The translations under genes were made by a program, and so were the position numbers. Positions 14,742-34,746 of a DNA stretch of 34,746 nt are shown here, piece after piece (the stretch's first letter is position 1; each line of letters opens with the position of its first letter). The DNA lies in assembly GCA_022703255.1 (NCBI GenBank), contig JAKLDZ010000010.1:1-34746 (forward strand), read 5' to 3'. The notes under the pieces were generated by a model. The model was given only the letters and a program-made list of their open reading frames with translations. It was not told where the DNA came from and ran no database searches. Source of the stretch: Myxococcota bacterium. GTDB lineage: Bacteria; Myxococcota_A; Polyangia; Polyangiales; Polyangiaceae.

Positions 14742-16121
14742 ATGGTCACGTTCGTCCGGATCCCTTCCTGGTGGAATCGTCGTTCCGCCCATCCGGAGAA
14801 CGTCATGAGCCCGCTCGACATCGGCTACGCGATCGCCCTGCTCGAGCGCCGCGGTGTGCAGGCCCACCTCCTCGACATCGAGGCAACGAACGCTTCTCCC
14901 GATGCCGTACGCCGGGCACTGCTCGATCGGTCGCCAGAGACCGTCGTGCTGCACGCGATCACCCCCGCCATTCCCGACGCCCTTTCTCTGGCGCGCTTCG
15001 TCAAGGAGCGTATCCCTTCGACCCGCAAGGTCGTTCTCGTGGGCCAACACGCCTCCGTGCTCCCCGCGTCGGTCCTCGGTCCCGCTTCCCCCATCGACCT
15101 GTGCATTCGAGGTGAGTTCGAGAGGAAGATCGTCGAGGTCGCCACCGCGCCCACCTTCGACGCGACCGGCACGGCCACGGCGCAGCAGGTCAGCGAGACC
15201 GTGCTGGAGCTCGACGATCTCGACGAGCTCCCCTTCCCTTCGCACGAGCTGTTTCGCAGTCCGCGATATCGAGTCTTTCATCCGACGGGGGTTCGTCGCC
15301 GCTGGAGGTGGGGATTCATCCTCTCGAGTCGGGGGTGCCCACACTCGTGCGTGTACTGCTCGCCGACCCTGCGCAACTCCTTCGGATCCCGCTATCGCAC
15401 GCGCTCCTGCGGGAATGTCGTCGCCGAGCTGCGACACCTGCAGGACCTCGGATTCACGCTCGCGCACTTCAAGGACGACCTGTTCACCCTGCACAAGGAG
15501 CGGATTCACGAGCTCTGCGACGCGATCCTCTCCGCGGGCCTGCGGCTCCCGTGGACGGCGCAGACCCGTCCGGATGCGGTGGACGAGCCGCTTCTCCGGG
15601 CGATGAAGCGCGCGGGATGCCACACGCTCGGCATGGGTGTCGAGACCGGGAGCGCGCGCATGGTCCAACAACTGCGCAAGGGCAACCGGATCGACGACGT
15701 GCGCAATGCCTTCCGTTGGGCGAGGGCGGCCGGCCTGCGCACGGTGGCGTTCTTCATCCTCGGCAGCCCGGGAGAGACGGAGGCCGATGTCTCCGAGACG
15801 TGGCAGATCATGCGGGAGATCGAGCCCAGCATGATCCAGGTGGCGTTCTTCACGCCCTACCCGGGATCGGCCGCGTGGGACGCGAGCCTGTCGGCTTCCC
15901 ACGATCCGACCTCCTTCTCGCACTACAACGCAGTCGTCAACCTCTCCGCGATTCCCACCGATCGGTTGCAGCGGCTGCAGCGCAGATTCTACCTCGACTT
16001 CCTGACGAGGACCGGGTTCGTGCGGGAGTACGCGCGCTCCGAGTGGTTGCCCGCGCTGATCAACGCCGACAAGTTCCTGCCGTTCCTGAAGCTCAGCGCA
16101 TCGTTCCTGATGCGTCGGTGA
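14742..16121 (+). CDS. Cobalamin-binding-type radical SAM protein (copy A)
   Basis: 459 aa from the ATG at 14742; an earlier in-frame ATG at 14670 adds 24 non-family-like residues. Residues about 20-135 form a Rossmann-like B12-binding domain without the classical D-x-H-x-x-G motif, as is usual in this class. The radical SAM core starts with SSRG, then C199-P-H-S-C203-V-Y-C206. SAM-binding segments follow (G-M-G-V-E-T-G-S and F-F-I-L-G-S-P-G-E-T), and the C-terminal about 90 residues are the usual helical extension. Known members methylate unreactive carbons, contract or cyclise rings, or act like BchE. There is no clear Shine-Dalgarno, and a TACGCT six bases before the ATG allows a leaderless transcript. 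It is the outermost gene of the redox block and ends 4 bases from the convergent copy B. Confidence 0.85.
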   Translation: MVTFVRIPSWWNRRSAHPENVMSPLDIGYAIALLERRGVQAHLLDIEATNASPDAVRRALLDRSPETVVLHAITPAIPDALSLARFVKERIPSTRKVVLVGQHASVLPASVLGPASPIDLCIRGEFERKIVEVATAPTFDATGTATAQQVSETVLELDDLDELPFPSHELFRSPRYRVFHPTGVRRRWRWGFILSSRGCPHSCVYCSPTLRNSFGSRYRTRSCGNVVAELRHLQDLGFTLAHFKDDLFTLHKERIHELCDAILSAGLRLPWTAQTRPDAVDEPLLRAMKRAGCHTLGMGVETGSARMVQQLRKGNRIDDVRNAFRWARAAGLRTVAFFILGSPGETEADVSETWQIMREIEPSMIQVAFFTPYPGSAAWDASLSASHDPTSFSHYNAVVNLSAIPTDRLQRLQRRFYLDFLTRTGFVREYARSEWLPALINADKFLPFLKLSASFLMRR

Positions 16122-16125
16122 CCCG

Positions 16126-17412
16126 TCACCAACGCAGCCATTGCGCCGCTCGACGGGCGATGGTGGCCATTCCCGGCAGGCCGCCTCCGGCACGGTCTAC
16201 CAGCGCTCCGAGGCGCGCGGGCTCTCCGTAGTATTGGAGGTAGAACCCCGCGCGGAATGCGCGGAGTGCGGTCCACGCCATGGGTCGATGCGCCTGCTGG
16301 AGGGGCTGTCCGGGCAATCGACGGTAGACGGAGACATGGGCCAGGTCGAGGGGCAGACGGCGAATTGCCGCGGCCTGGGACAGCAGGCCAAGAGGCGTGT
16401 CGTGGGGGAGACCGATCAGGAAGTAGCCGGTGGTGGAGATTCCTCGCCGCCGAGCGTGCCGCGCCACCCGCTCGAGGTGGTCGAGATCGAAGGTCCTGTC
16501 GATGGCCCGCTGATTGTCCCCGCAGAGGCTCTCGAGACCGAAGGCGAGGGACCGCACGCCGGCGCCGGCCATCGCATCCAGCAGGTCTTCGTCCAGCAGG
16601 TCCGGATTCACCCCGTTGGGGAGATCGATCGTGGTGCCCGGCGCCCGCAGCGCGATTCTCTCGAACAGGCCCTTCGCCCAGCTCGGATCGATCACCAGGG
16701 CGTCGTCCTCGAAGACGACGCCTCGCACGCCGTGCTCTGCGCGGAGCCGCCGGATCTCCTCGACCACGGCGTCGGGCTCACGCTTGCGGAAGTCCCCGCG
16801 GCACAGGGCATGGGCCGAGCAGTAGCCGCACCGCTTCACGCACCCGCGGGTGGCGATCATCGCCGTCCTGGCGATTCCGCCGTAGCTCCCCTGCCGGTAA
16901 TACCGATGCATCGGAAACGTCGTCCGATCCGGGAAGTCGAGCGCACCCAGATCGTCGTGCACATACACTTCTGCGCTCCTGCCGTCTCTTCGCACCACCC
17001 CGGGCGGCGCCGCGTCGCCGCTCCACAGCTTCGCGATCGGCAGCTCGCCGTCCCCGCGAACCGCCGCGTCGGCACCGACACGCGCCAACACTTCGTGGGG
17101 TGCGAGGGTGGCGTGCGGGCCTCCCGCCACGATCAGCGCACGCGGTTGCAGGCGCCGCACCAGCGCTGCAATCGACGCCGCCCGCCGGACCTCGGTCGAC
17201 ATGACCCGAATGCCTGCGATCGCGAAGGGCTGCGTCTTCAGGAGTCGCTCCAGGGCCGCATCGGACTCGATTCGCAGATCGATGCCGTGCACCGTCGCGC
17301 CAGCTCGTCGCAGATGTCCAGCGAGATACGCGAGCCCCAGCGGGTAGGTCAGGTCGCGGCTCTTGCCGGGCTCGATGAGCAGCACACTTGGATTGTCTCT
17401 CGTCGAATCCAT
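16126..17412 (-). CDS. Cobalamin-binding-type radical SAM protein (copy B)
   Basis: 428 aa from the ATG at 17412, which puts the B12-like domain (SVLLIEPG, then YPLGLAYLAGHLR) at the N-terminus as in the family. The motif A-G-G-P-H-A-T (96-102) is typical of these Rossmann domains. The cluster motif is C191-V-K-R-C195-G-Y-C198. A SAM-binding G-L-E-S and a G-Y-F-L-I-G-L-P segment follow. It starts 8 bases after the stop of copy C, so the two are co-transcribed. Compared with copies A, C and D, the core and C-terminal tail are short. The substrate is unknown. Confidence 0.87.
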   Translation of the reverse strand: MDSTRDNPSVLLIEPGKSRDLTYPLGLAYLAGHLRRAGATVHGIDLRIESDAALERLLKTQPFAIAGIRVMSTEVRRAASIAALVRRLQPRALIVAGGPHATLAPHEVLARVGADAAVRGDGELPIAKLWSGDAAPPGVVRRDGRSAEVYVHDDLGALDFPDRTTFPMHRYYRQGSYGGIARTAMIATRGCVKRCGYCSAHALCRGDFRKREPDAVVEEIRRLRAEHGVRGVVFEDDALVIDPSWAKGLFERIALRAPGTTIDLPNGVNPDLLDEDLLDAMAGAGVRSLAFGLESLCGDNQRAIDRTFDLDHLERVARHARRRGISTTGYFLIGLPHDTPLGLLSQAAAIRRLPLDLAHVSVYRRLPGQPLQQAHRPMAWTALRAFRAGFYLQYYGEPARLGALVDRAGGGLPGMATIARRAAQWLRW

Positions 17413-17420
17413 GGCCGGGC

Positions 17421-18848
17421 TCAATCGAAGTAGAGCGACTTGAGCAGCATCCGGGCGGCGGTTCGCGCGGAACGCGTGAGCTCGTCGCCGCTGCGCACCC
17501 GTCCGATCGCTCGCGTGAGGTAGCCGGGCCGGTAGTAGAACATGAAGTACGCCAGCTTGGTCAGCAGCTCGATCTGCGCTTCGGACAGCTCTGTCCAGGG
17601 ACTGGGCATCCGCCGCTCGGGCGCCGCTCCGCTCACCCAATCGCGCCAGTAGTCCTCACCGGACACCGCCACGATCCGGTCGTGGAGCGGAGTGTTCGGT
17701 TTGGCGATCGTGCGCGAGAACTGGGCGTAGTCGAGCCCCAGGCTCATCGCGAACAGGATGGTGCGCAGGGCCGTCGTGAGCGTCTCCCCCGGGCTCCCGA
17801 TCATGAAGAACCCGAGCGCGCGTATCCCTTCTCGTCGGAGCAGATCGACCGCAGTCCGGGCGCTGGAGGGCTTCACCCTTTTGCGCAGCAGCTCGAGGAT
17901 CGCTGGGTCCGACGATTCGATGCCGAGGTAGACCTGGCGCACGCGGGCGCGGCGGAGTGCGGAGGCGACGTGAGCATCGATGTTGTCGACGCGGGCGCGG
18001 CAGGAGAACTCCATATCGTCGGGGGCGGCAGCCAGCCCCTCGAGGAGCTGCCCGGTTCTGGCCCCGGGGGTCAGGAAGTTGGCGTCGAAGAAGTCGACCT
18101 CCCTGATCTGGAATCGCTCGCGCGCTTCACGCACCTCGGCGATCACGTTGTCGGGCGATCGGGCGCCTCGCGGGAGCGGAGCGATCGCGCAGAAGTTGCA
18201 GTCGTAGGAGCAGCCCAGGGTGGTGAGCGCGATGGTGAAGTTTCTTCGTTGCGAGATGAAGGAGTAATACAGGTCGTTCTGCAGCAGGTGACGGGCCGGC
18301 CAGGGGAACGCATCGAAGTCCACGCGCGACTCGGCGGAGGGCGGATTCACCACGAGCTCGCCGCCGACCTTGCTCCCCACTCCGGGGATCTTCTCGATCG
18401 GCCCGCCGCCGTCGAGGGCGGCGAGCAGACGCGGGAGGGACTCGGTGGCGTGGCCCGCGACGATGTAGTCGATCTCCGGGTGCGCGAGGGTCTCGCGCGG
18501 ATACAGGAGACAGTTGATCCCCCCCGCGATCACCGGACAACCGAGGATCACCTTGAGCGACCGCGCCCACCTCAGCGTGTCGCGAAACATGTACGTCGAG
18601 AAGTACAGCCCGACAGCGTCGGGCGCGAACTCCCCTATCTCGCGCAGGATCGCGGCTTCGCTCGCCCGCCCCAGACGCGTCAGGGCGTTGGCGTCGAATA
18701 TCCGCACCGTGTGCCCCGCGCGCTCCGCAATCGCCGCTGCGTACGCCACGTTGATCGGCGGGAAGACACCGAAGTCCTCGTCGACGACGAAGATGTTCTC
18801 CTCGAACCTCTTGTGGCTGTAGGGGGCGAATACGAGGGCGAGCTTCAT
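17421..18848 (-). CDS. Cobalamin-binding-type radical SAM protein (copy C)
   Basis: 475 aa from the ATG at 18848 (MKLALVFAPYS, a normal family start). The B12-binding-like domain spans about 1-145 (F-P-P-I-N-V-A-Y-A-A-A-I-A-E-R-A-G; A-G-G-I-N at 108-112). The radical SAM motif is C213-S-Y-D-C217-N-F-C220, with later G-I-E-S-S-D and F-M-I-G-S-P-G-E-T segments. The tail includes a P-W-x-E-L-S-E-A-Q-I helix, as in many B12-radical SAM proteins. It lies 110 bases downstream of the SPASM-type gene on the same strand and 8 bases upstream of copy B, so the five genes from 21012 down to 16126 are probably one operon. Confidence 0.88.
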   Translation of the reverse strand: MKLALVFAPYSHKRFEENIFVVDEDFGVFPPINVAYAAAIAERAGHTVRIFDANALTRLGRASEAAILREIGEFAPDAVGLYFSTYMFRDTLRWARSLKVILGCPVIAGGINCLLYPRETLAHPEIDYIVAGHATESLPRLLAALDGGGPIEKIPGVGSKVGGELVVNPPSAESRVDFDAFPWPARHLLQNDLYYSFISQRRNFTIALTTLGCSYDCNFCAIAPLPRGARSPDNVIAEVREARERFQIREVDFFDANFLTPGARTGQLLEGLAAAPDDMEFSCRARVDNIDAHVASALRRARVRQVYLGIESSDPAILELLRKRVKPSSARTAVDLLRREGIRALGFFMIGSPGETLTTALRTILFAMSLGLDYAQFSRTIAKPNTPLHDRIVAVSGEDYWRDWVSGAAPERRMPSPWTELSEAQIELLTKLAYFMFYYRPGYLTRAIGRVRSGDELTRSARTAARMLLKSLYFD

Positions 18849-18958
18849 CTGCGCAACGAGAGCTCGGGAAAGGCGCTTCGGGACATCCGGGTCCCCGGAG
18901 TATAGGAGCACCCCCCGCGCCGGCGCAATCGCGGTGGAGCGTTGCCCGTGTCGCCCGC

Positions 18959-19942
18959 TCACCCGAGGAGCTGATCGATCCACGCGCGGGGATCGAGCTG
19001 GAATACCCGGGAGATCCTCAGCTTCCCCGCACAGGTGCACCCTTCGCACTCCGGAAGCGTCAGCCGTGAAAACGCCTTCGCGAACCCCAGCGATCGCGCG
19101 TCCTCCACCGCGCCGCCGCGACCGCTTCCGCAGAAGATCAGCCCTCCGTCGGGCAGCATCGTCGCCGTCACCAGCGCGCAGTGGCACCCGCGAAGCTCGC
19201 CCCGGCTGACCTGCAGATAGTAGAGCAGCTCGGCTCGCGACGTCCCCAGCCAACGCGCCATCGGACTGCGGGATCGCTTCAACGCCAACAGCCTTCGCAG
19301 CGCCGCAGAGAGCTCGATGGGATCGGGCGCCGACGGCTCGCCGCCCGCGGGCCGCGGATCGGCGGCGAGCGGTTGAACGTGGATGCGCACGCCGAGGCTC
19401 GCGGCGTGCTCGAGGACCTCATCGAGCCCTCGCACGTTGTCGCGCGTGATGCAGGTGACCAGCTTCACGGCAATGCCCGCTTCGCGAGCCGCCCGCACCG
19501 CCCGCGCGGCCCGCTCCGCGCTGCCGGCGCCGCGGAGACGATCCTGCAGCGCAGGGGGACCGTCGAGGCTGATCTGCAGCAGATCGAGCTGTCGCAGCGC
19601 ATCGATGCGAGCAGGCACCAGGGCGCCGTTGCTGTTGAGCTTGCAGGCCATTCCGCCGCGCTTCACCGCTTCGACGAGACGACCGATGTCCTCGCGCAGC
19701 AGCGGCTCTCCCCCCGTGAACGACACCAGGCGCACGCGCGCTTCGCGCATCTGCGCGATCATGTCGAGCGCCGCTTCGGTGTCGAGCTCTGGGCAACTGC
19801 GCAGGTCCTTCCAACGGCAGTAAGCACAGTCGGAAGTGCACCGCCCGGTCACGAGCCATGCGACGGCAACCGGGACCGGCTTGTGGTCGAGCTGATAGCG
19901 CATCACGCTGCGCGCCACGGCCAGCTTGCTCTGCAGCTTCAC
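18959..19942 (-). CDS. Radical SAM protein with SPASM-like C-terminal cysteines
   Basis: 327 aa. The GTG at 19942 is chosen because GGGAGG lies just upstream and it overlaps the preceding stop by 4 bases (GTGA). The core motif is C35-T-S-D-C39-A-Y-C42, followed by SFTGGEPLLRED and LDG segments typical of the MoaA/PqqE/NirJ branch. The C-terminal region has C-H-C, then FCGSG, then P-E-C-x-x-C-x-C, a Cys set suited to one or two auxiliary [4Fe-4S] clusters. SPASM proteins often act on peptides or on heme-like and sugar substrates; which applies here is open. It is translationally coupled to the membrane protein upstream. Confidence 0.85.
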   Translation of the reverse strand: MKLQSKLAVARSVMRYQLDHKPVPVAVAWLVTGRCTSDCAYCRWKDLRSCPELDTEAALDMIAQMREARVRLVSFTGGEPLLREDIGRLVEAVKRGGMACKLNSNGALVPARIDALRQLDLLQISLDGPPALQDRLRGAGSAERAARAVRAAREAGIAVKLVTCITRDNVRGLDEVLEHAASLGVRIHVQPLAADPRPAGGEPSAPDPIELSAALRRLLALKRSRSPMARWLGTSRAELLYYLQVSRGELRGCHCALVTATMLPDGGLIFCGSGRGGAVEDARSLGFAKAFSRLTLPECEGCTCAGKLRISRVFQLDPRAWIDQLLG

Positions 19943-21012
19943 GGCGCCTCCCGCGTCGCGTCGTCGGTCGCGATCACTCGGCGTCGGTTGATCATCCGAA
20001 TCGACCAGGGGACTCCGACGATCGCGGGCACGACGTGGATCGACAGCGTCATGAGGGCGCCCACGAAGAACCCTGCCTCCGGCGACACGCCTGCGGGGCG
20101 CAACAGCTCGAGGAGAACTGCCTCGCGAGGACCGGAGCCGGCCAGGAATCCGGGGGCGTAGCCCGCGCACACCGCAGCCGCGCTCGCCGCCATCACGGCC
20201 CGGAATCCGGGATACACGTTCAACGCGGCCAGCAGCGCGTAGCAGACGACCAGCGGCCGCGCCTGGAAGACCACGCCATAACCGAGCAGAGTCAGCTTCC
20301 CCCGCGCCTCGATCCGTCGATAGGGCTCCAGCAGGCTCGCGATCCAACCGCCGAGCTTCGGGTGGAGTCCCGTGCCCCATCGCACCGCGAGCCCGTGTGC
20401 CGGTGTCGCGAAAACCGCGCCGATCCCCACCAGCAGCGCAATCACCAACACTCCGGTGAGCAGTGGCATCAGCCGGGAAATCGCCTCCGGAGCAGCATCG
20501 CCGCGCAGAACGAATCCCGCACCGATGACGAGCCAGAACAACGCTCCCAGGAAGTTGACGCCCTTGTCGAACACGACGGCGCCCGAAGCCCGGACCAGGG
20601 GCAATCCTGCGACGGTCCGAAAGCAGAGCACCTGCATCAGCTCGCCCGAAGCGAACGGCAGCAGGACCCGGGCGGGAGCGGAGGCGAGGCGTACCTGCAG
20701 AGTCTCGCGGTAGCGAATCGGCACGCCCATGGCACGCAGCACGAGGTGGAGCTTGTGGGCTCCGACGATCAGCCCGAAGGTCGCGGAAAGGACGAATACG
20801 AGCGCAACGGTTGCGACATTGGCCTCACGGGCTCCGTGTCGGAAGACCGTGAGATCGATACCGTGCCTGTGCCACACCCAGGCGATGAGCGCGCCGGTCA
20901 GCGCGACACCGGCCACGACGCCCAAACCGTTGCGCGCGACGGACTTTCCTTCCGCGCTGCTCCCTGCGCCCGGATCGGGCGCGCCTGTCTTGTGGAGCGA
21001 GTCCGCGCTCAT
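19939..21012 (-). CDS. UPF0104 / LPG-synthase-like integral membrane protein
   Basis: 357 aa from the ATG at 21012. About seven to eight hydrophobic segments are visible. The family landmarks of the lysylphosphatidylglycerol-synthase transmembrane domain (PF03706/UPF0104) are present: L-P-F-A-S-G-E (the first conserved Glu), VVFDKGVNFLG, and A-P-G-F-L-A-G-S-G-P-R-E-A-V (equivalent to P-G-G-L-G-x-R-E-A). Relatives include HpnL of hopanoid clusters and AglD-type proteins, often linked to lipid or polyprenyl-linked product handling. No cytoplasmic aminoacyl-transfer domain is attached. First gene of the - operon, it suggests the pathway product is lipidic or crosses a membrane. Confidence 0.82.
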   Translation of the reverse strand: MSADSLHKTGAPDPGAGSSAEGKSVARNGLGVVAGVALTGALIAWVWHRHGIDLTVFRHGAREANVATVALVFVLSATFGLIVGAHKLHLVLRAMGVPIRYRETLQVRLASAPARVLLPFASGELMQVLCFRTVAGLPLVRASGAVVFDKGVNFLGALFWLVIGAGFVLRGDAAPEAISRLMPLLTGVLVIALLVGIGAVFATPAHGLAVRWGTGLHPKLGGWIASLLEPYRRIEARGKLTLLGYGVVFQARPLVVCYALLAALNVYPGFRAVMAASAAAVCAGYAPGFLAGSGPREAVLLELLRPAGVSPEAGFFVGALMTLSIHVVPAIVGVPWSIRMINRRRVIATDDATREAP

Positions 21013-21233
21013 GGTCCCGCGGCGCGCGAGCGCGGAGCGGCTCGCGTGAAGGCGGCGGTGGGGAGCGGGGTTCTCGACATCCCCTCCTGAATACCACCGC
21101 CGCACGCCGCTTCTCAATGCGCGATCGGGTGACGCGCACGCGGTGGCGCCCGTTGCGCGGACGCAGGTGCCGTGTTACGCGGATCGGCGTGGATGGGCAG
21201 TGCGCGAGGCAGCAGCGAGCGAAGACCTCCTCG
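21013..21233. promoter_or_regulatory. Divergent control region between the two main operons
   Basis: About 220 bases lie between the start of the - operon (membrane protein) and the probable start of the + operon (DUF362 protein). Both operons must be driven from here. I could not pick confident -35/-10 boxes. The length depends on the uncertain DUF362 start; an ATG at 21117 would shorten it. Confidence 0.35.
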
Positions 21234-22391
21234 GTGTCCGTGCACGATTGCTCGTCGTACGAAGCGTGCGAGGAGCCCCTCGCCTTGGCCCTGCGCACCA
21301 GCGGGCTGCTCGATCATCTCGCGCGCAAGAGGGTGCTGCTCAAGCCCAACATGATGAAGGCCTCGCCGGCGGAGCGGGCCGAGTCCACCCACCCCCGCTT
21401 CGTTGCCGCGCTCACCGCCCTGCTGGTCAACCTCGACTGCGAGGTCCTCGTCGGCGACTCGTCCGGACTGCTCGGCTTCACCCAGGAGGTCCTCGACTCC
21501 ACGGGCATGACCGATGCCGTGCTCCGCGCCGGCGGCAAGGCCGTCAACCTCGATGCCGGCCCGTTCGTGCAGCTAACCGTGGGGGGCAGCGTCCGACGCG
21601 CGCTCTGGGTGCCCAGACTGCTGTTCGAGGTCGATCGCGTGGTGCAGGTCCCCAAGCTCAAGACGCACTCGCTCACGGTGATGTCGGCTGCAGTCAAGAA
21701 CCTGATGGGGCTGTTGCCCGGCGCCACCAAGTGCGATCTGCACGTGCGATTGCCGGGAGCCGCGCCGCTCTGCGGCGGGATCATCGACCTGTGTTGCGCT
21801 CTCGACGACGCCGGGGTGGACCTCGGAGCGGTGGTGGTCGATGGGCTCTGGGGACTCGCGCGCAAGGGGTCTCCCCGTGGGGAGTTGCTGCGCAAGCCCG
21901 AAGTGGTGATCGCATCGCGAAGCCTGTTCGCCGCAGACGTCGTGTGCGCGGAGGTCATGGGCCTGCGTCCGGAAGAGGTGCCCACGATCCGGATTGCGTC
22001 ACAGCGCGGCATCGGCCCCGCGAGCCTCGACGAGGTGGAGGTGGTGGGCAATCGCTGCGCCCTCGGCAAGACCCGATTCGAGCCGGCCTGGCGCGGTCTC
22101 AAGGACCGCGTCGAGACCGCTCACCGATTGCACTACTGGATCCGCGGCAGAACCGTGGAGGTCGTCCACGACCCTTCCCGCTGTCGCTCCGATCACGCGT
22201 GCATCGAGATCTGCCCGGTGCGCTGCATCGACCTTCGCGACGGTCGCGTCCGCATCGGCCCATCGTGCATCCGGTGCTTCGCGTGTCACGCGGCCTGCCC
22301 TCATGGCGCCATCCGCCTGCGGGTTCCGCGGCCGCTGCGTGGCACCTTCGACCGGCGCGCCGCGGGCGTGTCGACGGACAAGCTCGCATGA
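21234..22391 (+). CDS. DUF362 protein with C-terminal two-cluster ferredoxin domain
   Basis: 385 aa from the GTG at 21234, where DUF362 similarity begins (VSVHDCSSYEACEEPLALAL). An in-frame ATG at 21117 would add 39 Arg-rich residues and is less likely; neither start has a strong ribosome site. Residues about 35-290 are DUF362 (LLKPNMM, VPKLKTH, KNLMGLLPG). Residues about 313-360 are a bacterial-type ferredoxin. The second motif is a perfect C345-x2-C348-x2-C351-x3-C355-P. The first reads C317-x2-D320-x2-C323-x3-C327-P with C331 nearby, so an Asp replaces the second Cys. It is a plausible electron carrier for the NifH-like proteins or for the radical SAM enzymes. Its stop overlaps the next start (ATGA). 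Confidence 0.85.
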   Translation: MSVHDCSSYEACEEPLALALRTSGLLDHLARKRVLLKPNMMKASPAERAESTHPRFVAALTALLVNLDCEVLVGDSSGLLGFTQEVLDSTGMTDAVLRAGGKAVNLDAGPFVQLTVGGSVRRALWVPRLLFEVDRVVQVPKLKTHSLTVMSAAVKNLMGLLPGATKCDLHVRLPGAAPLCGGIIDLCCALDDAGVDLGAVVVDGLWGLARKGSPRGELLRKPEVVIASRSLFAADVVCAEVMGLRPEEVPTIRIASQRGIGPASLDEVEVVGNRCALGKTRFEPAWRGLKDRVETAHRLHYWIRGRTVEVVHDPSRCRSDHACIEICPVRCIDLRDGRVRIGPSCIRCFACHAACPHGAIRLRVPRPLRGTFDRRAAGVSTDKLA

Positions 22392-23860
22392 CGCGCGATC
22401 TCGAGACATCGTGGGAGGGTGGGGCATCGCGCGAAGCAGCGCGAGCGGTGTTGATCAACCCCAAGGCCACGTACGCACACGAGATCGCCCAGAAGTGCTT
22501 TCCTCCGCTCGGCCTGCTGTATCTCGCCGCGGCGTTGGATGCTTCCGGCATTCGGGCGCAGGTCATCGATGCGAACGCGCTTCGTCTCGACGTGGCCGCG
22601 ACGGTCGAGCGCGTGCGCCGGGCGTGCCCCGATCTTGTGGGTATGCCGATCCACGCCGAGACGCTGCGTGGGTGTGCGATCCTGTTCCGCGCCCTCCGCG
22701 CGGCGCTTCCGAACGTCGCTCTCGTCGCAGGAGGTCCCCAGGCTTCGGCCGTGCCGGAGTGGGTGCTCCAGCAGATTCCCGAGCTCGACTACGTGATCGC
22801 GGGGGAAGGGGAGACCAGCCTCGTGCGGCTCGTCGGGTGCGTGAAGTCCGGCGCACCCTTGACGGGCATCGACGGGCTGGCCACGCGCGCGGCCCCTGTG
22901 CCTTCGGGAGGTCTTGCGCGGCTCCCCGACCTCGACATGTTTCCGTATCCCGCGCGCTGGGCGGTTCGTGAGGCCTACGATCAGCGGCGCTACTACGCGC
23001 TCATGGTGCCACACCGTCGTATCGAATGCATCGTGACCAGCCGCGGATGCCCCTTTCGATGCGGCTTCTGCTTCAATGCCTCGCGCAAGGTCCGATTCCG
23101 ATCCATCGACCGCTGCTTCGACGAGCTCGAGCGGCTCCGGAGCGATGGGGTGCGCAGCGTGGAGGTGCTCGACGACAACTTCACCGCGAACACCGATCGG
23201 GCGATGGAGTTCTTCGAGCGTCTCGCACGGGAGCGGTGGGGGTTGGCGTTGCGGATCAAGGCGCGCGCGGACTCGATCACGCCGGGGCTGGTGGATGCAG
23301 CGCGGCGCGCGGGAGTCTACCAGGTGAGCCTCGGGGCGGAGTCGGGCGCACCCGAGCTGCTCGCGGCGATGGACAAGCGCATCACGGTGTCGCAGCTCCG
23401 TGACGCTGCGCGCCTGGTGATGGATCGCGGCATCGACTGCCACACGAGCTGGATCATCGGCTATCCGGGAGAGACGCCCGAAACGCTCCTCGCGACGCTG
23501 GCGCTGGTGCGGCAGATGCGTCCCACGACCGCGGGATTCTCGATCCTGGCCCCCTATCCGGGCACGCCGGTGTACGAAGCCGCGTTGCGCGACGGGACCT
23601 TGATGGGCGAGTGGTCCGCGCGCACGGGCGCGGTCCCGTGGATTCGGTTGAGCTGGACGCGCTCGTACGAGGACCTGGTGGCCGCGCGACGCGCGATGAT
23701 GCGCAAGGTGTATCTGCGGCCTCACTATGCGATCGAGTTCTCCCGACGCATCGTGGGCAGCGCGAACCTCATGCTCGCCCGGTATGCCGCGCAGGAGCTG
23801 CGTCGCACGCTCACGCCGCGCAGGCGCGGTCGTGACGCGGACGGCGACCGCACGCCTTGA
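22388..23860 (+). CDS. Cobalamin-binding-type radical SAM protein (copy D)
   Basis: 490 aa. The ATG at 22388 overlaps the DUF362 stop by 4 bases; the same frame is open far upstream, but that part is not protein-like. The B12-like domain occupies about 18-150 (VLINPK, then FPPLGLLYLAAAL; AGGPQAS at 114-120). The radical SAM motif is C221-P-F-R-C225-G-F-C228, followed by V-L-D-D-N-F, a G-A-E-S-G motif, and W-I-I-G-Y-P-G-E-T. It is most like the hopanoid HpnJ/BchE style of class in general architecture, but no substrate can be assigned. It is second in the + operon and is followed 33 bases later by the D-like subunit. Confidence 0.88.
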   Translation: MTRDLETSWEGGASREAARAVLINPKATYAHEIAQKCFPPLGLLYLAAALDASGIRAQVIDANALRLDVAATVERVRRACPDLVGMPIHAETLRGCAILFRALRAALPNVALVAGGPQASAVPEWVLQQIPELDYVIAGEGETSLVRLVGCVKSGAPLTGIDGLATRAAPVPSGGLARLPDLDMFPYPARWAVREAYDQRRYYALMVPHRRIECIVTSRGCPFRCGFCFNASRKVRFRSIDRCFDELERLRSDGVRSVEVLDDNFTANTDRAMEFFERLARERWGLALRIKARADSITPGLVDAARRAGVYQVSLGAESGAPELLAAMDKRITVSQLRDAARLVMDRGIDCHTSWIIGYPGETPETLLATLALVRQMRPTTAGFSILAPYPGTPVYEAALRDGTLMGEWSARTGAVPWIRLSWTRSYEDLVAARRAMMRKVYLRPHYAIEFSRRIVGSANLMLARYAAQELRRTLTPRRRGRDADGDRTP

Positions 23861-23893: not shown

Positions 23894-25765
23894 ATGCGCC
23901 AAGAACCCGCCCCGGCCAGTCGCTCGCCAGACCCGGGCGAAAGCCTGCGGGGGCGGACCCTCACCTGCGGACCCGCCACGCATCGACGCCTCGCGCGCCT
24001 GCTCGGCTTGGATCGCGGCCCGGAGTCCTACGAGATCGCCTCCGCGCTCTGGGTCTCCGATCACCTCGAGATCGAGCTCGTCGCGATCGCCGATCCAAGC
24101 CGGATTTCCCTGGTTCTCGAGGAGACCCGGCCAGAAGGCGCGTTCGTCGCTGGACCCGAGGTTTGCCTCTGGGTTCGTGACTCGAGCGTTCCCCCGCAGC
24201 TCGCTCGCAGGCTGCAAGCCGTGACCCGCCCCTTGCTCGAGCGCCTCGCGCTGTCGGACCTCGAGCGCATGGTCGTCTTGGATCCCGATGCCGCGCCGTC
24301 GGTTCCCGCACGACCCGGGCGCGACGACCCGTCCCCGCAGCCTCCGCTCGAAGGGATATCGATCCCCACGACCGCCGTTCGGGCGCACACCGCACCCGAG
24401 CTGTACGGCGACTTCTTCGCCGCCTCGGAGATTCGTCGCGCCGGCTGCGATCTCATCGACGTGCACAGCGCGCACACGCTCGTGACCCACGGCGACGTCG
24501 AGTGCTCCTACTGCGCGGTCTGCGTCCCGAGCCCCCGCGTCGGCCTCGTGCGCCTGCCCGTCTACGAGACCGTCCGCAACCTCGGCAAGCCGCCCGCGCA
24601 ACACGGAGCGTTCGACGAATCCGAAGACCCTTCGAGCGCGTTCTGCTCGGACATGACCGAGGAGGACGTGATCAAGGGGAGCCCCTCCAGGATGGGCGAG
24701 GTCCTGCGTCACGCCGATCTGCACCGATCCCGGGACAGCCTGCTGGTGGTCGGGCTGTGCCTTCCCGACGTCATCGGAGAAGATCAGGAGTCCGCTGTGC
24801 GTGAGTTCACGCAGACCACGACCACGCCGGTGTTCTCGGTGCCGGCCGCGCCGCGCTCGTGGGCCTGGCTCGCGAAGGATCTCCTGCGGACCCGCAGGCA
24901 GGCGCTACCGCAGCCGGATGCTGCGCAACAACGCGAACCGTCCGTGAACCTGATCGGATTCGCACGCAACGCGGGGAGCGACGAGCTCGTCGAGCTGTTG
25001 GCCACTGCGGGCATCTCGGTCTCGACCTTCCTGCTCCCGGAGCTTGCGATGGACGCGGTCGCCCGGATTTCGCGTGCGGCCGTGAATGTCTATCTCCCCA
25101 ATGTCCACTGGGAGAAGACGTACTCCCATCTGCAGGACGATCCCGGGCGGCGGCATCGGGTGCTCGACGGACCCTTCGGGATGCAGGGAACGCGTCGATG
25201 GATCGAGGAGGTCTGCGCGGAGCTGGCGGTGGAGTGCGACGTGTCCGGGATTCTCTCGGAGCGGGTCGCGGGGCTCGCTCAGCGTTGGGAGGCGTTGCGC
25301 GCCCAGGCCGCGGAGTGCCGGCTCGGGCTCGTGGTGCCCGGCCACGAGGTCGAGACGCTCCTCGACGCCCGTCATTCGTGGGGAATTCCCCTGACGCGCG
25401 TGCTGCGGGAGATGGGGTTCGGGCTGGACCTGATCGTGGGGAGTGAGGCCGGGGCCCGGCTGTTCCGTACTCGCACGACGCTCTCGGAAGCCGACTACAC
25501 GCTAAGCACGTTCAACAGCCTCCCGGATTTGCTGGAGACGTTGCAGGGCAGCCCCTGCCAGGCCGTCTTCTCGAACTACGTCTTCGATTGGCGTCTCGTC
25601 TGCGCAGGCAAGGCCCCGTTCTCCACCCTCGAGTTCGAATACGGCCTTCAGGGTGCCATTGCCACCCTCGAACGCCTCCTCGCGGTGTGCCGTCTCCCGC
25701 TCTTCCGCGCGGGACGCAGGTTCATCGCTCCGGACGTCGGACGGGAAGGTGCCAATGCCGTCTGA
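23894..25765 (+). CDS. Nitrogenase-like catalytic subunit, D-like (set 1)
   Basis: 623 aa; AGGAAGG precedes the ATG. Residues about 160-615 show the nitrogenase component-1 fold signature: T-H-G-D-V-E-C204 (equivalent to the HGP-x-GC cysteine, NifD C88), S-D-M-T-E-E-D-V-I-K-G (equivalent to S-D-F-Q-E-x-D-I-V-F-G-G), V-G-L-C289-L-P-D-V-I-G-E-D (equivalent to the ECP-x-GLIGDD cysteine, C154), and LIGFARNAGSDELVELL opening the second Rossmann domain. No counterpart of the first P-cluster Cys (C62) or of the FeMo-cofactor ligands C275 and H442 was found. Residues 1 to about 155 are an extra domain I do not recognise, ending in a Pro-rich linker. It overlaps the K-like gene by 11 bases. Inferred to be the substrate- and [4Fe-4S]-binding half of an ATP-dependent reductase. 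Confidence 0.85.
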   Translation: MRQEPAPASRSPDPGESLRGRTLTCGPATHRRLARLLGLDRGPESYEIASALWVSDHLEIELVAIADPSRISLVLEETRPEGAFVAGPEVCLWVRDSSVPPQLARRLQAVTRPLLERLALSDLERMVVLDPDAAPSVPARPGRDDPSPQPPLEGISIPTTAVRAHTAPELYGDFFAASEIRRAGCDLIDVHSAHTLVTHGDVECSYCAVCVPSPRVGLVRLPVYETVRNLGKPPAQHGAFDESEDPSSAFCSDMTEEDVIKGSPSRMGEVLRHADLHRSRDSLLVVGLCLPDVIGEDQESAVREFTQTTTTPVFSVPAAPRSWAWLAKDLLRTRRQALPQPDAAQQREPSVNLIGFARNAGSDELVELLATAGISVSTFLLPELAMDAVARISRAAVNVYLPNVHWEKTYSHLQDDPGRRHRVLDGPFGMQGTRRWIEEVCAELAVECDVSGILSERVAGLAQRWEALRAQAAECRLGLVVPGHEVETLLDARHSWGIPLTRVLREMGFGLDLIVGSEAGARLFRTRTTLSEADYTLSTFNSLPDLLETLQGSPCQAVFSNYVFDWRLVCAGKAPFSTLEFEYGLQGAIATLERLLAVCRLPLFRAGRRFIAPDVGREGANAV

Positions 25766-27161
25766 GCCCCTGAGCTGCAACGACGAGGATCTCTCGCTGC
25801 GCGCGACCCTGCCTCGATCCACGGGGTTGTCGTTGGCGGTCAACGCGATCCCCGATGCCTACCTCCTGATCGACGCGCCCCACTGCGCATATCGCCGTCT
25901 CGCGTACGTTCAAGGCAACCACGATCTCGAATCGACACTCGCGCTCGTGCCGGGAGTCCCGAGGGTGACCAACACGGAGCTGTCTCCGCTGAAGGTCATT
26001 CGGAATCGGGATGCGGAGCTGAAGGAGGCGCTGACCGCTCTGGCATCCCACCCTGGCGCCGGCGTGGTGCTCGTGGACGCCGTCGCGATGGCGCTCATCA
26101 CGGCCTCCGACTATGGACGCATCTGCGCCTCGGTATCCGAGGAGACCGCTCGGCCGGTGCTTCCGGTGCCTCACCGCTCGCTCACGGGCGACTGCCTGCA
26201 TGCGTATGCGGAGGTGATGGAGGCGCTGGCCGCCGGCCTCCCCATCGAGAAGCGCTCCGGCGCCGGCCACAAAATCGCGATCGTCGGCCTGCTCTGGGAT
26301 CGGAACGAGGGAGATCTTCGCGGCAATCTCTCGGAGCTGCAGCGCATCGCCGCCGCGCTCGGCCTGGAGCTCGTCGCGACCTGGTTCTCCGGACACCCCA
26401 CGACCGACCTGCTCCGGGTCCAGGAGGCGGACCTCGTGGTGTCGCTTCCCCATGGGCGTCGCGCCGCACGCGAGCTCTCACGCCGTCTCGGTATCCCATC
26501 CATCGCCGCAGAGCTTCCGTTCGGTGTGTCGAGCACGATCCGTTTCGTGCTGTCGATCGGGGCGGCCACGGGACGCTTCGAGGCTGCGCTCGCGTTCGTG
26601 GAGCGGGAGCTTGCGGAGGTGCTGCCCCGGCTCAAGTGGGTGGTCCCCTTCGCGCTGCTGCACCGTCGCCTCGGGTACGTGGGAGACCCCCACCTGTTCC
26701 GCGGAATGCAGGAGATTGCTGCGCTGCTCGGGTGCACTCTCCCCTTCGCCGCGTTCACCAACGTGCCGGCACACGAGCGAGCATCCCGCGAGGTGACCGC
26801 AGGACTCCCCGACGGAATCCCCATTCCCGAGGATGTCTGCGCGTTGGCGATGCTGGAGCCGGCAAAGGCCCCGGACACGCGGCTCGTGTACCCCCACGCG
26901 CGCGAGCTCAACGACACGCTGCAAGGCCTTGCTCGCGCACGCGCCCTGGATCTGCTCGTGACCAACAGCTTCGGGTTCCTCACCGACGGCATCGCGACCG
27001 TGGAGCTCGGATTCCCCTCGTACCACACGCACGCGCTCACCGATCGTCCCTTCCTCGGCATGCGCGGCTTCTTGGGGCTTGCGGAGAGAATGGTCAACGC
27101 GTTGCGGGCCTTCGAGGTCCGCAGTGCGCAAGAGCGAAGCAGGCCTCGAGGTCCCGCATGA
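25755..27161 (+). CDS. Nitrogenase-like catalytic subunit, K-like (set 1)
   Basis: 468 aa from the ATG at 25755 (11-base overlap with the D-like gene, same operon). Family landmarks are: the N-terminal segment LAVNAIPDAYLLIDAPHC44AY (C44 at the HGP-x-GC position), Q-G-N-H-D-L-E-S-T-L, a second Rossmann domain starting KIAIVGLLWDRNEGD, L-V-V-S-L-P, a P-F-G segment (equivalent to I-P-x-G), and a C-terminal T-D-R-P-F-L-G-M-R-G-F-L-G-L-A-E-R-M. The second Cys motif of NifK (TTC-x-EVIGDD) is replaced by a Cys-free stretch (ALITASDYGR). So the pair would offer two Cys from D and one from K, enough for a BchNB-type cluster but not a P-cluster. It has 28 more residues than the set-2 partner. Confidence 0.83.
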   Translation: MPSEPLSCNDEDLSLRATLPRSTGLSLAVNAIPDAYLLIDAPHCAYRRLAYVQGNHDLESTLALVPGVPRVTNTELSPLKVIRNRDAELKEALTALASHPGAGVVLVDAVAMALITASDYGRICASVSEETARPVLPVPHRSLTGDCLHAYAEVMEALAAGLPIEKRSGAGHKIAIVGLLWDRNEGDLRGNLSELQRIAAALGLELVATWFSGHPTTDLLRVQEADLVVSLPHGRRAARELSRRLGIPSIAAELPFGVSSTIRFVLSIGAATGRFEAALAFVERELAEVLPRLKWVVPFALLHRRLGYVGDPHLFRGMQEIAALLGCTLPFAAFTNVPAHERASREVTAGLPDGIPIPEDVCALAMLEPAKAPDTRLVYPHARELNDTLQGLARARALDLLVTNSFGFLTDGIATVELGFPSYHTHALTDRPFLGMRGFLGLAERMVNALRAFEVRSAQERSRPRGPA

Positions 27162-29299: not shown

Positions 29300-30175
29300 A
29301 TGCGCGCCCAACGAATAGCCATCTACGGAAAGGGGGGTATTGGCAAGTCCACCGTGGCTACCAGCCTTTCCGTGCTGTTCGCCATGGCCGGTGACAAAGT
29401 CCTTCATGTGGGCTGCGATCCGAAACGCGACTCCTCCCTCCGGCTGATCGACGGTGCCCCGCGCCCCTCGGTCCTGGAGGCTCTCGAAGCCTGCGGAGAC
29501 CAGATCTCCCCTGACCAGATCGTCTCCGTAGGTCGTCACGGAGTCGAGCTCGTCGAGGCCGGCGGCCCCGAACCCGGAGTCGGCTGCGCCGGCCGCGGCG
29601 TCAGCCTCATGCTCGAACGCCTCGATCAGCTCGGACTCGTCGAGCAGCGCGCCTACGACAGGGTCGTCTACGATGTCCTGGGCGATGTCGTGTGCGGGGG
29701 ATTCGCGGCGCCTCTTCGCAGGGGAATCGGCCAGCGTGTCTACATCGTGACGTCGGAAGAGCCCATGAGCCTCTACGCCGCCAACAATATCGCAAAGGCC
29801 GTGGTCAAGGCCTCCCGAAACGGCGTCTCCCTCGGCGGCCTCATCGTCAACTTGCGCGAACAGGGCGACTTCCGCGCCCCCCTCGAGGCCTTCGCCTCAT
29901 CCCTCGGCACCCGGATCATCGGCACCATCCATCGCGATCCCCTCGTCCGAAAGGCCGAATACCGGTTCGAAACCGTCGTCGAATACGCCCCCAAGGCTCC
30001 CAGCTCCGTGGAGCTCCGCCGTCTCGCCGACGCCATCCGCAATACTCCCCCGCACGCGACATTCCCTCTCCCCACGCCGCTCGACCAGGACGCGTTCGTG
30101 CGGTTCGTGCGCGCCCACCTCGGCGATCGCGACGCGGCCGAGCCCCTCGCCGGGGAGAACGCCGGTGAGCGATAG
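29300..30175 (+). CDS. NifH-like ATPase iron protein (copy 2)
   Basis: 291 aa from the ATG at 29300; upstream in-frame codons are not NifH-like. It has Walker A G-K-G-G-I-G-K-S (10-17), GCDPK (38-42), C96 in VEAGGPEPGVGCAGRG (identical in form to nitrogenase NifH), C132 in YDVLGDVVCGGFA, and Y-A-A-N-N-I-A-K (switch/docking segment). Its C-terminal extension ends in an acidic and Ala-rich tail. The stop overlaps the GTG start of the D-like gene by 11 bases, so it is co-translated with set 2 and is its evident iron protein. It uses strongly C-ending codons, more than neighbouring set 1. Confidence 0.9.
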   Translation: MRAQRIAIYGKGGIGKSTVATSLSVLFAMAGDKVLHVGCDPKRDSSLRLIDGAPRPSVLEALEACGDQISPDQIVSVGRHGVELVEAGGPEPGVGCAGRGVSLMLERLDQLGLVEQRAYDRVVYDVLGDVVCGGFAAPLRRGIGQRVYIVTSEEPMSLYAANNIAKAVVKASRNGVSLGGLIVNLREQGDFRAPLEAFASSLGTRIIGTIHRDPLVRKAEYRFETVVEYAPKAPSSVELRRLADAIRNTPPHATFPLPTPLDQDAFVRFVRAHLGDRDAAEPLAGENAGER

Positions 30176-33382: not shown

Positions 33383-34746
33383 ATGACGTCTATTCTTGGG
33401 ATATCCGCCTTCTACCACGACTCGGCCGCGGCGCTGGTCGTGGACGGGCGCATTGTGGCGGCAGCGCAGGAGGAGCGCTTCTCGCGCAGGAAGCACGACT
33501 CCGGATTCCCGAAGAAAGCAATCGAGTTCTGCCTCTCCCAGGCGGGGCTGACCGCGTCGGACCTGGACTGCGTCGGATTCTACGAGAAACCCCTCAGGAG
33601 GTTCGAGCGCCTCCTCGACACCTGGCTCTCCGAGGCCCCCCGCGGCTTCACCCAGTTCCTCCAAGCCGCTCCGATCTGGCTGCGGGAGCGCATGTATCCC
33701 GCGCGCCAGCTTCGATCGGGCCTCGGTCCCGGCTACCGGAAACGCTTCGCCTACGTCGAGCACCACGAGTCCCACGCGGCCAGCGCGTTCTTCCCCTCGC
33801 CGTTCGACGAGGCCGCGATTCTCACCCTCGACGGCGTGGGAGAGAGCGCGACTGGAACTCTCGGCTCCGGGCGCGGTCATCGCATCGAGCTGACCCACGA
33901 GCAGCGCTTTCCCCACTCCCTTGGGCTGCTGTATTCGGCGTTCACCTACTACACGGGCTTCCGCGTGAACTCCGGGGAATACAAGCTCATGGGGCTCGCC
34001 CCCTACGGGGTTCCCCGCTACGCAGACCGGATCCTGGAGCGCCTGGTCGACGTGAAACCCGACGGGTCGCTGCGGCTCGATCTTTCCTACTTCAACTATT
34101 GCCGCGGATTGACCATGACCTCTGCGCGGTTCCACAGCCTCTTCGACGGGCCCCCGAGGAAGCCGGAGTCGCCGATCACCCAGCGGGAAAAGGATCTCGC
34201 CGCGTCGATTCAGGCGGTGACCGAGCAGATCGTCCTCCGGAGCGCACGGCACCTGCGTGAGTTGACAGGGCTCGACCGGCTCTGTCTCGCAGGGGGAGTC
34301 GCGCTCAATTGCGTGGCCAACGGCAAGCTGCTTCGGGAGGGAACGTTCCGCGACATCTGGGTTCAGCCCGCGGCGGGCGACGCCGGCGGAGCCCTGGGAA
34401 CCGCGCTGTTCCTCTGGCACCAGCTGATGGGCCGGGAGCGACGGCCCGATCCTTTGGATTCCATGAGCGGCGCGCTGCTCGGTCCGGGCTACGAGGACGC
34501 CGCGATCCGACGCGCTCTCGAGGCGATCGGACTGCGGTATCGGACATTCGAGGACGACACGTCGCTCTGCGCGTTCGCCGCGGAGCTCATCGCGAGCCAG
34601 AAGGTGATTGGGTGGTTCCAGGGACGCATGGAGTTCGGTCCGCGTGCCCTCGGTGGCCGTTCGATCATCGGTTGTCCGAGCGTGCCGGGCGTGGCTGACC
34701 GCATCAATGCGCAGATCAAGTTCCGCGAGCGCTGGAGACCCTTCTG
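33383..34746 (+). CDS. NodU/CmcH-family carbamoyltransferase (3' end beyond window)
   Basis: The ATG at 33383 lies 15 bases after the K-like stop; 454 codons are visible and the frame is still open at the edge. N-terminal landmarks are G-I-S-A-F-Y-H-D-S-A-A-A, QEERFSRRKHDSGFP (29-43), HHESHAASAFF (127-137) and ILTLDGVGE (146-154). Later come G-E-Y-K-L-M-G-L-A-P-Y-G, CLAGGVALNC, and GWFQGRMEFGPRALGGRSI of the C-terminal domain. The family makes carbamoyl-adenylate from carbamoyl phosphate and ATP and moves the carbamoyl group to a hydroxyl of a sugar or natural product. Its place in the set-2 operon suggests the product carries an O-carbamoyl group, or that carbamoylation activates an intermediate. 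Confidence 0.9.
   Translation, partial: MTSILGISAFYHDSAAALVVDGRIVAAAQEERFSRRKHDSGFPKKAIEFCLSQAGLTASDLDCVGFYEKPLRRFERLLDTWLSEAPRGFTQFLQAAPIWLRERMYPARQLRSGLGPGYRKRFAYVEHHESHAASAFFPSPFDEAAILTLDGVGESATGTLGSGRGHRIELTHEQRFPHSLGLLYSAFTYYTGFRVNSGEYKLMGLAPYGVPRYADRILERLVDVKPDGSLRLDLSYFNYCRGLTMTSARFHSLFDGPPRKPESPITQREKDLAASIQAVTEQIVLRSARHLRELTGLDRLCLAGGVALNCVANGKLLREGTFRDIWVQPAAGDAGGALGTALFLWHQLMGRERRPDPLDSMSGALLGPGYEDAAIRRALEAIGLRYRTFEDDTSLCAFAAELIASQKVIGWFQGRMEFGPRALGGRSIIGCPSVPGVADRINAQIKFRERWRPF

What the first reader, a model, noticed from the sequence alone, without database searches (positions are those of the whole stretch)
14742..23860. Four distinct B12-type radical SAM proteins in 9 kb
Copies A-D each have a Rossmann-like N-terminal domain and a C-x3-C-x2-C motif but differ in length (459, 428, 475, 490 aa) and core motifs, so they are unlikely to be recent tandem duplicates. 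Several sequential radical steps (methylation at sp3 carbon, cyclisation or ring contraction) are implied.
Basis: partly seen in the sequence, partly recalled or inferred. Interest (0 to 1): 0.6.

Follow-up and report, generated by a model that had tools for sequence, protein, structure and literature searches.

The report
Double nitrogenase-like radical-SAM biosynthesis cluster
Four vitamin-B12-type radical enzymes in an uncultured bacterium turn out to be part of a larger set of about fifteen genes, including two nitrogenase-like reductases, that probably builds an unknown small molecule without oxygen.

Summary
Four intact B12-binding/radical-SAM genes (A-D) lie at 14742-23860 with the stated lengths (B and C if they start at their inner ATG). 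They are 25-30% identical, form four separate lineages, and are not recent duplicates. The frame is wider. The interval also holds a fifth radical SAM (E), a flippase-like gene and a DUF362-ferredoxin gene, and it runs into two complete nitrogenase-like H-D-K systems, a sixth radical SAM (F) and a carbamoyltransferase cut by the contig end. Matches to all 15 genes occur in one other genome of another genus, over four contigs. At high identity, five of five tested genes are restricted to these two genomes among 183 of the order, with fragments of three in a third. D and K lack nitrogenase's cofactor Cys and most P-cluster Cys, so N2 fixation is very unlikely. The kind is known: uncharacterised 'group VI' nitrogenase paralogues beside radical-SAM suites. 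What I add is the 15-gene set, the carbamoyltransferase link with its Elusimicrobia fusions, and the Cys pattern. The product is unknown; a tetrapyrrole-like compound is my first guess.

The parts
14742..16121 (+). A: B12-binding/radical SAM protein, 459 aa
   Evidence: PF02310 8.7e-10, PF04055 2.4e-21; orthologue 59% in G016 contig C21; nearest solved structure AprD4 6fd2, E 3.8e-34
16126..17412 (-). B: B12-binding/radical SAM protein, 428 aa
   Evidence: PF02310 1.5e-19, PF04055 2e-18; orthologue 45% in G016 C21
17421..18848 (-). C: B12-binding/radical SAM protein, 475 aa
   Evidence: PF02310 1.8e-17, PF04055 4.1e-17; orthologue 71% in G016 C21
18959..19942 (-). E: radical SAM protein without B12 domain (start uncertain, 19942 or 19960)
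   Evidence: PF04055 2.9e-22; orthologue 53% in G016 C4
19939..21105 (-). flippase-like membrane protein (LPG_synthase_TM), start uncertain
   Evidence: PF03706 1.4e-20; homologue 39% next to E in G016 C4
21177..22391 (+). DUF362 + two [4Fe-4S] ferredoxin-type protein (start uncertain, 21117-21234)
   Evidence: PF04015 5e-38 and Fer4 matches; 51% orthologue only in G016 of 183 genomes at E 1e-40
22388..23860 (+). D: B12-binding/radical SAM protein, 490 aa; overlaps the DUF362 gene by 4 bases
   Evidence: PF02310 1.7e-19, PF04055 1.5e-22; orthologue 56% in G016 C4, next to DUF362
23894..25765 (+). NifD1: nitrogenase-like D subunit with an N-terminal extension, 623 aa
   Evidence: PF00148 3.5e-27; alignments A2, A4
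25755..27161 (+). NifK1: nitrogenase-like K subunit (start uncertain)
   Evidence: PF00148 2.4e-32; 59% orthologue in G016 C35
27158..28276 (+). F: radical SAM protein, 372 aa
   Evidence: radical-SAM family models, best W_rSAM_matur 54 of 380 bits; PF04055 match on the contig at 27266-27667; 45% orthologue after NifK1 in G016 C35
28344..29159 (-). NifH1: Fe-protein-like ATPase (start uncertain)
   Evidence: PF00142 6.1e-79; P-loop and the two Cys of the NifH cluster motifs
29300..30175 (+). NifH2: Fe-protein-like ATPase (start uncertain)
   Evidence: PF00142 2.3e-79; P-loop and both Cys motifs
30165..32048 (+). NifD2: nitrogenase-like D subunit, 627 aa; residues from about 145 have the component-1 fold, 1-135 an extra domain
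   Evidence: PF00148 4.6e-18; model pLDDT 80.3, 9d9u_A Z 19.5, rmsd 4.0 over 364 residues
32045..33367 (+). NifK2: nitrogenase-like K subunit, 440 aa
   Evidence: PF00148 5.5e-41; 61% orthologue in G016 C69, all other matches in other genomes 41% or less
33383..34746 (+). carbamoyltransferase (NodU-related family), cut off by the end of the contig
   Evidence: PF02543 1.8e-97, PF16861 1.1e-21; 62% orthologue in G016 C21

Best explanation
A-D are four of the six radical-SAM enzymes of one anaerobic biosynthetic pathway encoded by about 15 genes at 14742-34746. Two nitrogenase-like systems (H1-D1-K1 and H2-D2-K2) of the group VI kind act as ATP-driven, very low-potential reductases: H passes electrons to a [4Fe-4S]-type cluster held by conserved Cys of D and K, and DK reduces the substrate directly, without FeMo-cofactor. 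The DUF362-ferredoxin protein is a likely electron donor. A-D and E-F make radical C-C, C-methyl or ring-forming changes; the carbamoyltransferase decorates the product; the flippase-like protein moves it or an intermediate across a membrane. The substrate is a hydrophobic conjugated compound, most likely a tetrapyrrole, by analogy with bacteriochlorophyll synthesis, which also pairs two nitrogenase-like reductases with B12-radical-SAM enzymes. Shown: gene content, co-occurrence, loss of nitrogenase ligands. Inferred: electron path, every reaction, the substrate.
For: Matches to all 15 genes in G016, in blocks on four contigs. Among 183 genomes of the order, A, C, D and K2 at high identity and DUF362-Fd at E 1e-40 only in G000 and G016, with A, C, D fragments in G017; the same-genus genome G001 lacks them. 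Overlapping genes DUF362/D, D1/K1, K1/F, H2/D2, D2/K2. Carbamoyltransferase near D-K in 4 Elusimicrobia loci of 3 genomes among 58 loci compared; in two it is fused to a ferredoxin and an E-like radical SAM. 32 of 76 scanned conserved neighbours of related loci are radical SAM. D: only two Cys, C201 and C287, invariant in 38 rows; K: only one, C36, in 40 rows; the NifD Cys275 position is Pro and the NifK Cys153 position Arg in D2/K2. Later authors describe group VI as putative tetrapyrrole cofactor biosynthesis or modification (PMC9391474, PMC11257099, passages).
Against: No tetrapyrrole-specific gene was found in the window genes scanned. The TP_methylase matches in related loci are RsmI-like and sub-cutoff in the two I checked. 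D/K profiles match the methylthio-alkane reductase and nitrogenases better than the protochlorophyllide reductase. A C-E-flippase module occurs in other genomes without nitrogenase-like genes in the stretches read, so part of the set has a life of its own. A need not belong: it is convergent with B and not co-transcribed with the rest. The set is complete in only two genomes, both fragmented assemblies.
Confidence: 0.5

Rival explanations
1. The pathway remodels a membrane lipid or isoprenoid rather than a tetrapyrrole: B12-radical-SAM enzymes cyclise, methylate or join hydrocarbon parts, nitrogenase-like reductases reduce double bonds, and the flippase moves the lipid.
For: flip-E-C-B are consecutive on one strand here and C-E-LPG_synthase_TM is a conserved module in other genomes of the order. 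Best weak NCBIfam relatives of A, B, C are hopanoid and lipid B12-radical-SAM models (HpnJ, rSAM_ladder_B12).
Against: All those matches are far below cut-off. No acyl, prenyl or polyketide enzyme was matched in the cluster. No nitrogenase-like enzyme with a lipid substrate is known to me (recalled).
Confidence: 0.25
2. Peptide (RiPP) or protein maturation: the radical-SAM proteins modify a peptide and the nitrogenase-like pair reduces it.
For: E and F give their best weak matches to peptide or enzyme maturases such as mycofactocin and tungsten-enzyme maturases.
Against: Gaps between the genes are short, with no evident precursor gene; no SPASM match in E. Small ORFs under 80 aa were not searched.
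Confidence: 0.1
3. Two unrelated neighbours: a B12-radical-SAM/flippase pathway (A, B, C, E, flip) and a separate nitrogenase-like pathway (DUF362, D, H-D-K x2, F, Carb) that happen to abut.
For: The C-E-flip module exists without nitrogenase genes; A, B, C lie on another contig than H-D-K in G016.
Against: In G016 the carbamoyltransferase sits near A, B, C and not near H-D-K, and flip-E sits next to D-DUF362, so the two proposed halves are mixed. High-identity A, C, D and K2 share the same rare pattern.
Confidence: 0.15

Closest known systems
Group VI nitrogenase paralogue loci of groundwater Elusimicrobia and Myxococcales (Meheust et al. 2020, ISME J; paper not held, known from recall and from passages of PMC9391474 and PMC11257099)
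   Same: H-D-K homologues beside many radical-SAM genes; the K alignment reaches 25 Elusimicrobia loci and 23 titled Deltaproteobacteria, Myxococcales, Myxococcota or Anaeromyxobacter, of 52
   Different: two H-D-K sets with four B12-radical-SAM genes, DUF362-ferredoxin, flippase and carbamoyltransferase in one locus; whether that paper shows such a set I could not check; no tree with its sequences was built
Bacteriochlorophyll synthesis (BchLNB, BchXYZ, BchE)
   Same: two nitrogenase-like reductases without FeMo-cofactor ligands plus B12-radical-SAM enzymes (pathway recalled)
   Different: no chelatase or other pigment gene matched; NCBIfam scores far below cut-offs (D1 to BchN 48 of 420 bits, D to BchE 161 of 481)
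Methylthio-alkane reductase MarHDK and isethionate reductase IsrBHDK
   Same: Mar is the best solved match of the D profile and the top row of the second-look fold list (9d9u); Isr is also paired with a radical SAM (PMC11423573, passages)
   Different: the family keeps two invariant Cys in D and one in K; N-terminal extra domain; several radical-SAM genes rather than one
AprD4 radical-SAM diol dehydratase
   Same: best solved relative of A, B, C and D by sequence
   Different: matches centre on the radical-SAM half; NF033070 scores are far below cut-off

Membership tests
B12-dependent radical SAM enzymes | CxxxCxxC and radical-SAM domain | tested here: met
   all four
B12-dependent radical SAM enzymes | B12-binding domain PF02310 above cut-off | tested here: met
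   all four; A weakest, 38.9 bits against a cut-off of 32.1
B12-dependent radical SAM enzymes | cobalamin actually bound | not testable with these tools
   no DxHxxG in any, not required in this class (PMC8992657 passages)
BchE / HpnJ equivalogs | NCBIfam cut-off | tested here: not met
   D-BchE 161 of 481, A-HpnJ 156 of 578 bits
Group VI nitrogenase-like | H, D, K homologues with radical-SAM suite in Myxococcota and Elusimicrobia | tested here: met
Group VI nitrogenase-like | position inside the published group VI clade of a NifH tree | not tested
   reference sequences not at hand; membership inferred from hosts and neighbours
Nitrogenase (N2-fixing) | FeMo-cofactor ligand Cys275 of NifD (number recalled) | tested here: not met
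   aligned to Pro413 of D2; no further invariant Cys in 38 D rows
Nitrogenase (N2-fixing) | FeMo-cofactor ligand His442 of NifD (number recalled) | not tested
   outside the local alignment
Nitrogenase (N2-fixing) | six P-cluster Cys | tested here: not met
   only C201, C287 in D and C36 in K are invariant
Protochlorophyllide reductase DPOR | NCBIfam BchN/BchB cut-offs | tested here: not met
   48 of 420 and 45 of 490 bits for D1
Protochlorophyllide reductase DPOR | cluster held by three Cys of N and one Asp of B (recalled) | tested here: not met
   invariant Cys are two in D and one in K; K H48 and D49 also invariant
O-carbamoyltransferase | PF02543 and PF16861 | tested here: met
   C-terminal part cut by the contig end

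The most novel reading that the evidence does not exclude
A chlorophyll-like, oxygen-free pathway in Myxococcota makes an unknown, doubly reduced, C-alkylated and carbamoylated cofactor or pigment, using a new type of nitrogenase-like catalyst whose three-Cys [4Fe-4S] cluster at the D-K interface has one iron site free or held by His/Asp and may itself bind the substrate. In Elusimicrobia the ferredoxin, carbamoyltransferase and radical-SAM steps are fused in one polypeptide.
Probability: 0.2. Interest if true: 0.85.

Novelty: new variant of a known kind. Interest (0 to 1): 0.6.

Why it matters
Group VI nitrogenase-like enzymes have no known reaction that I am aware of (recalled, and none in the searches). 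A defined gene set that is split into four blocks in a second genome gives a testable pathway list and a candidate set for expression. The ligand pattern points to a reductase without FeMo-cofactor, and the carbamoyltransferase fusions give a clue to the chemistry of the product. If the product is a tetrapyrrole, it would be a new branch of cofactor or pigment biosynthesis; if not, nitrogenase-like chemistry would reach a new substrate class.

Tried and rejected
Recent tandem duplication of A-D: rejected. N2 fixation: rejected on ligands. Tetrapyrrole support from TP_methylase neighbours (4 of 76): weakened, the two I looked at are RsmI-like below cut-off; the other two were not looked at. KamA-like gene at 9800-11599 as a member: set aside, no match in the G016 stretches fetched; G016 was not searched whole for it. 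N-terminal domain of D2 (1-140, pLDDT 88.2): Foldseek best E 0.22, VIA-align best Z 5.8, rmsd 7.0, 105 residues; no relative named, which is no proof of a new fold. Enrichment check: 90 radical-SAM-type ORFs in 820 kb of 52 related loci (11.0 per 100 kb; 41 of 52 loci) against 4 in 120 kb of 8 control stretches (3.3 per 100 kb); biased both ways, as the profiles were trained partly on those loci and at least two control stretches were picked for radical-SAM hits. My searches tested the DUF362 gene in a wrong frame and found nothing; one search has the right frame.

D-K Cys mapping: an early reading took C201 for the NifD Cys62 position; the profile alignment puts it at the Cys88 position. The K C36 to NifK Cys95 match is by eye from the motif, as the local alignment starts later; for the same reason the loss of Cys62 and Cys70 rests on the lack of any further invariant Cys.

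Paper not held: Meheust 2020 by DOI. Searches in which I saw no paper on this gene set: (PMC open-licence papers only, listings; one search returned none).
Full report
What was claimed and what is there. They are present, intact and of the stated lengths (428 and 475 aa need the inner ATG starts of B and C). Pfam finds both domains above cut-off in all four, and each has CxxxCxxC. In the draft genome (6.29 Mb, 932 contigs, 73.5% complete) 19 such domain pairs can be formed; four within about 8 kb is rare under random placement (3.5e-5). A tree of 44 rows separates A, B, C and D, each with its own orthologue in another genus at 100/99-100 support.

The setting. The window is the whole contig C2. 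From 14742 to its end I read: A (+); flip-E-C-B (-); DUF362-ferredoxin, D, NifD1, NifK1, F (+); NifH1 (-); NifH2, NifD2, NifK2, carbamoyltransferase (+), the last cut off. Several neighbours overlap by a few bases, which suggests co-transcription. So the locus has six radical-SAM genes and two complete nitrogenase-like H-D-K systems. The genome holds four more component-1 matches on contigs C18 and C102 and further NifH-like genes.

Do the genes belong together? Order-wide searches of 183 genomes were made for five genes: A, C, D, DUF362-ferredoxin and K2. Matches above 50% identity were found in G000 and G016 only, plus fragments of A, C and D in G017. Less similar relatives occur in other genomes at the cut-offs used: 9 genomes for A (30-33%), 7 for C (36-38%), 1 for D (34%), none for DUF362-ferredoxin; for K2 five genomes besides G000 and G016, all at 41% or less. 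G001, of the same genus as the window, lacks the high-identity set. B, E, F, flip, H1, H2, D1, K1, D2 and the carbamoyltransferase were not searched order-wide with their own sequences. A rare shared pattern with mixed blocks supports one pathway. Against it, C-like, E-like and flippase-like genes also form a module without nitrogenase-like genes in the stretches read of G103, G031, G014 and G179, with C and E alone seen on the short contig of G018 (Pfam shows the flippase family in the two I scanned, G103 and G179).

What kind of nitrogenase-like system. One scan of named prokaryote genomes with the K alignment returned 52 loci: by record title 25 Elusimicrobia, 15 Deltaproteobacteria, 7 Myxococcales or Myxococcota, and one each of Anaeromyxobacter, Oligoflexales, Bradymonadales, Spirochaetes and an unnamed bacterium. 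This is the host range recalled for the group VI paralogues of Meheust et al. 2020. That paper is not held; two later papers, of which I read passages, describe group VI as putative tetrapyrrole cofactor biosynthesis or tetrapyrrole modification (PMC9391474, PMC11257099). I built no tree with published group VI sequences, so the filing rests on hosts and neighbours.

Ligands and fold. In 38 D proteins only two Cys are invariant (C201, C287 of D2); in 40 K proteins only one (C36), with H48 and D49. Aligned to a true NifD and NifK of the relative G010, C201 and C287 fall on the Cys88 and Cys154 positions, the cofactor Cys275 position is Pro, and the NifK Cys153 position is Arg (residue numbers of nitrogenase recalled). 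K aligns to NifK (97.9% probability) far better than to NifD (21%). The His442 position was not tested. So a FeMo-type cofactor and a full P-cluster are very unlikely; a single [4Fe-4S] cluster at the D-K interface with three Cys and one other or no ligand is my inference. The D2 model (pLDDT 80.3) has the component-1 fold from about residue 145; best second-look match 9d9u_A, Z 19.5, rmsd 4.0 over 364 residues; DPOR 2xdq_B Z 16.0, rmsd 4.6 over 382. H1 and H2 keep the P-loop and both cluster Cys motifs.

Neighbours in related loci. I compared 59 sources (window, 6 own-family stretches, 52 named loci). With profiles grown from the window, radical-SAM-type ORFs were found in 34 of 59 and B12-radical-SAM ORFs in 23 of 59, many loci being short contigs. 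Of 294 predicted neighbours within 5 kb, 211 had no assignment; I scanned the 76 with the strongest cross-locus similarity and 32 are radical SAM. Carbamoyltransferases lie near D-K in four Elusimicrobia loci (L054, L073, L077, L081; L077 and L081 are one contig); 33-35% identity to the window's was measured in three. L054 carries ferredoxin, carbamoyltransferase and a weak radical-SAM match in one ORF by Pfam, and L077 the same by BLAST; L073 carries ferredoxin and carbamoyltransferase. The ferredoxin likeness to the window's DUF362 protein is only 32-40% over 52-59 residues and could be generic.

How it may work. Electrons go from a ferredoxin (perhaps the DUF362 protein) to NifH, then with ATP to the D-K cluster and the substrate; the six radical-SAM enzymes alkylate, cyclise or rearrange; carbamoylation and transport follow. 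All steps are inferred from families. For the substrate, a tetrapyrrole is favoured because the known nitrogenase-like enzymes without FeMo-type cofactor act on tetrapyrroles (recalled), because of the earlier assignment, and because bacteriochlorophyll synthesis uses the same toolkit. It is disfavoured by the lack of tetrapyrrole genes, by better D-K profile matches to Mar and nitrogenase, and by the flip-E-C module, which fits a lipid as well.

Verdict. Observation confirmed; interpretation too narrow. Known kind, a new and richer variant as far as I could check; product unknown. Interest 0.6.

Noticed in passing
L024 (G000 contig C18) 2627-7188: One 1085-aa ORF reads NifH-NifH-NifD (three Fer4_NifH stretches, then Oxidored_nitro), followed by a K-like gene, a TonB receptor, a periplasmic binding protein and FecCD permease: a fused nitrogenase-like system beside a metal-chelate or corrinoid-type uptake operon.
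   Followed up: partly
L025 (G000 contig C102) 3358-10531: A third D-K pair of the same family with two B12-radical-SAM genes upstream in the same genome.
   Followed up: partly
L119 12092-17654 (G103), also L121, L123, L125: Conserved module of a C-like B12-radical SAM, E-like radical SAM genes and a flippase-like protein, without nitrogenase-like genes in the stretches read.
   Followed up: partly
L054 16895-20398; L077 5108-8677: Fusion of an unknown N-terminus of about 200 aa, two-cluster ferredoxin, carbamoyltransferase and radical SAM in Elusimicrobia loci.
   Followed up: partly
L054 3703-6348 and other Elusimicrobia loci: NifH-NifD fusions look common: several D-type genes also match the H profile with about 380-400 bits.
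   Followed up: no
L041 267-15909: A Myxococcales contig made almost only of H-D-K and radical-SAM or B12-binding genes, one of 981 aa with two radical-SAM stretches.
   Followed up: no
window 30165-30584 and 23894-24340: N-terminal domain of NifD2 (modelled, pLDDT 88.2; NifD1 has the aligned counterpart) without a clear match among solved structures.
   Followed up: partly
window 9800-11599 (-): KamA-family radical SAM of 599 aa (TIGR00238, 315 bits against a cut-off of 199), about 180 aa longer at the N-terminus than the family match.
   Followed up: no
window 7972-9267 (+): HipA-type toxin gene with N-terminal HipA domain; no family was matched in the one upstream ORF tested for a partner.
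   Followed up: no
window 9259-9768 (-): Short reading frame with ResIII/SNF2 helicase similarity, perhaps a remnant.
   Followed up: no
G001:C77:389978-392552: Two adjacent B12-radical-SAM genes, each 34% identical to D, in the same-genus genome that lacks the high-identity set.
   Followed up: no
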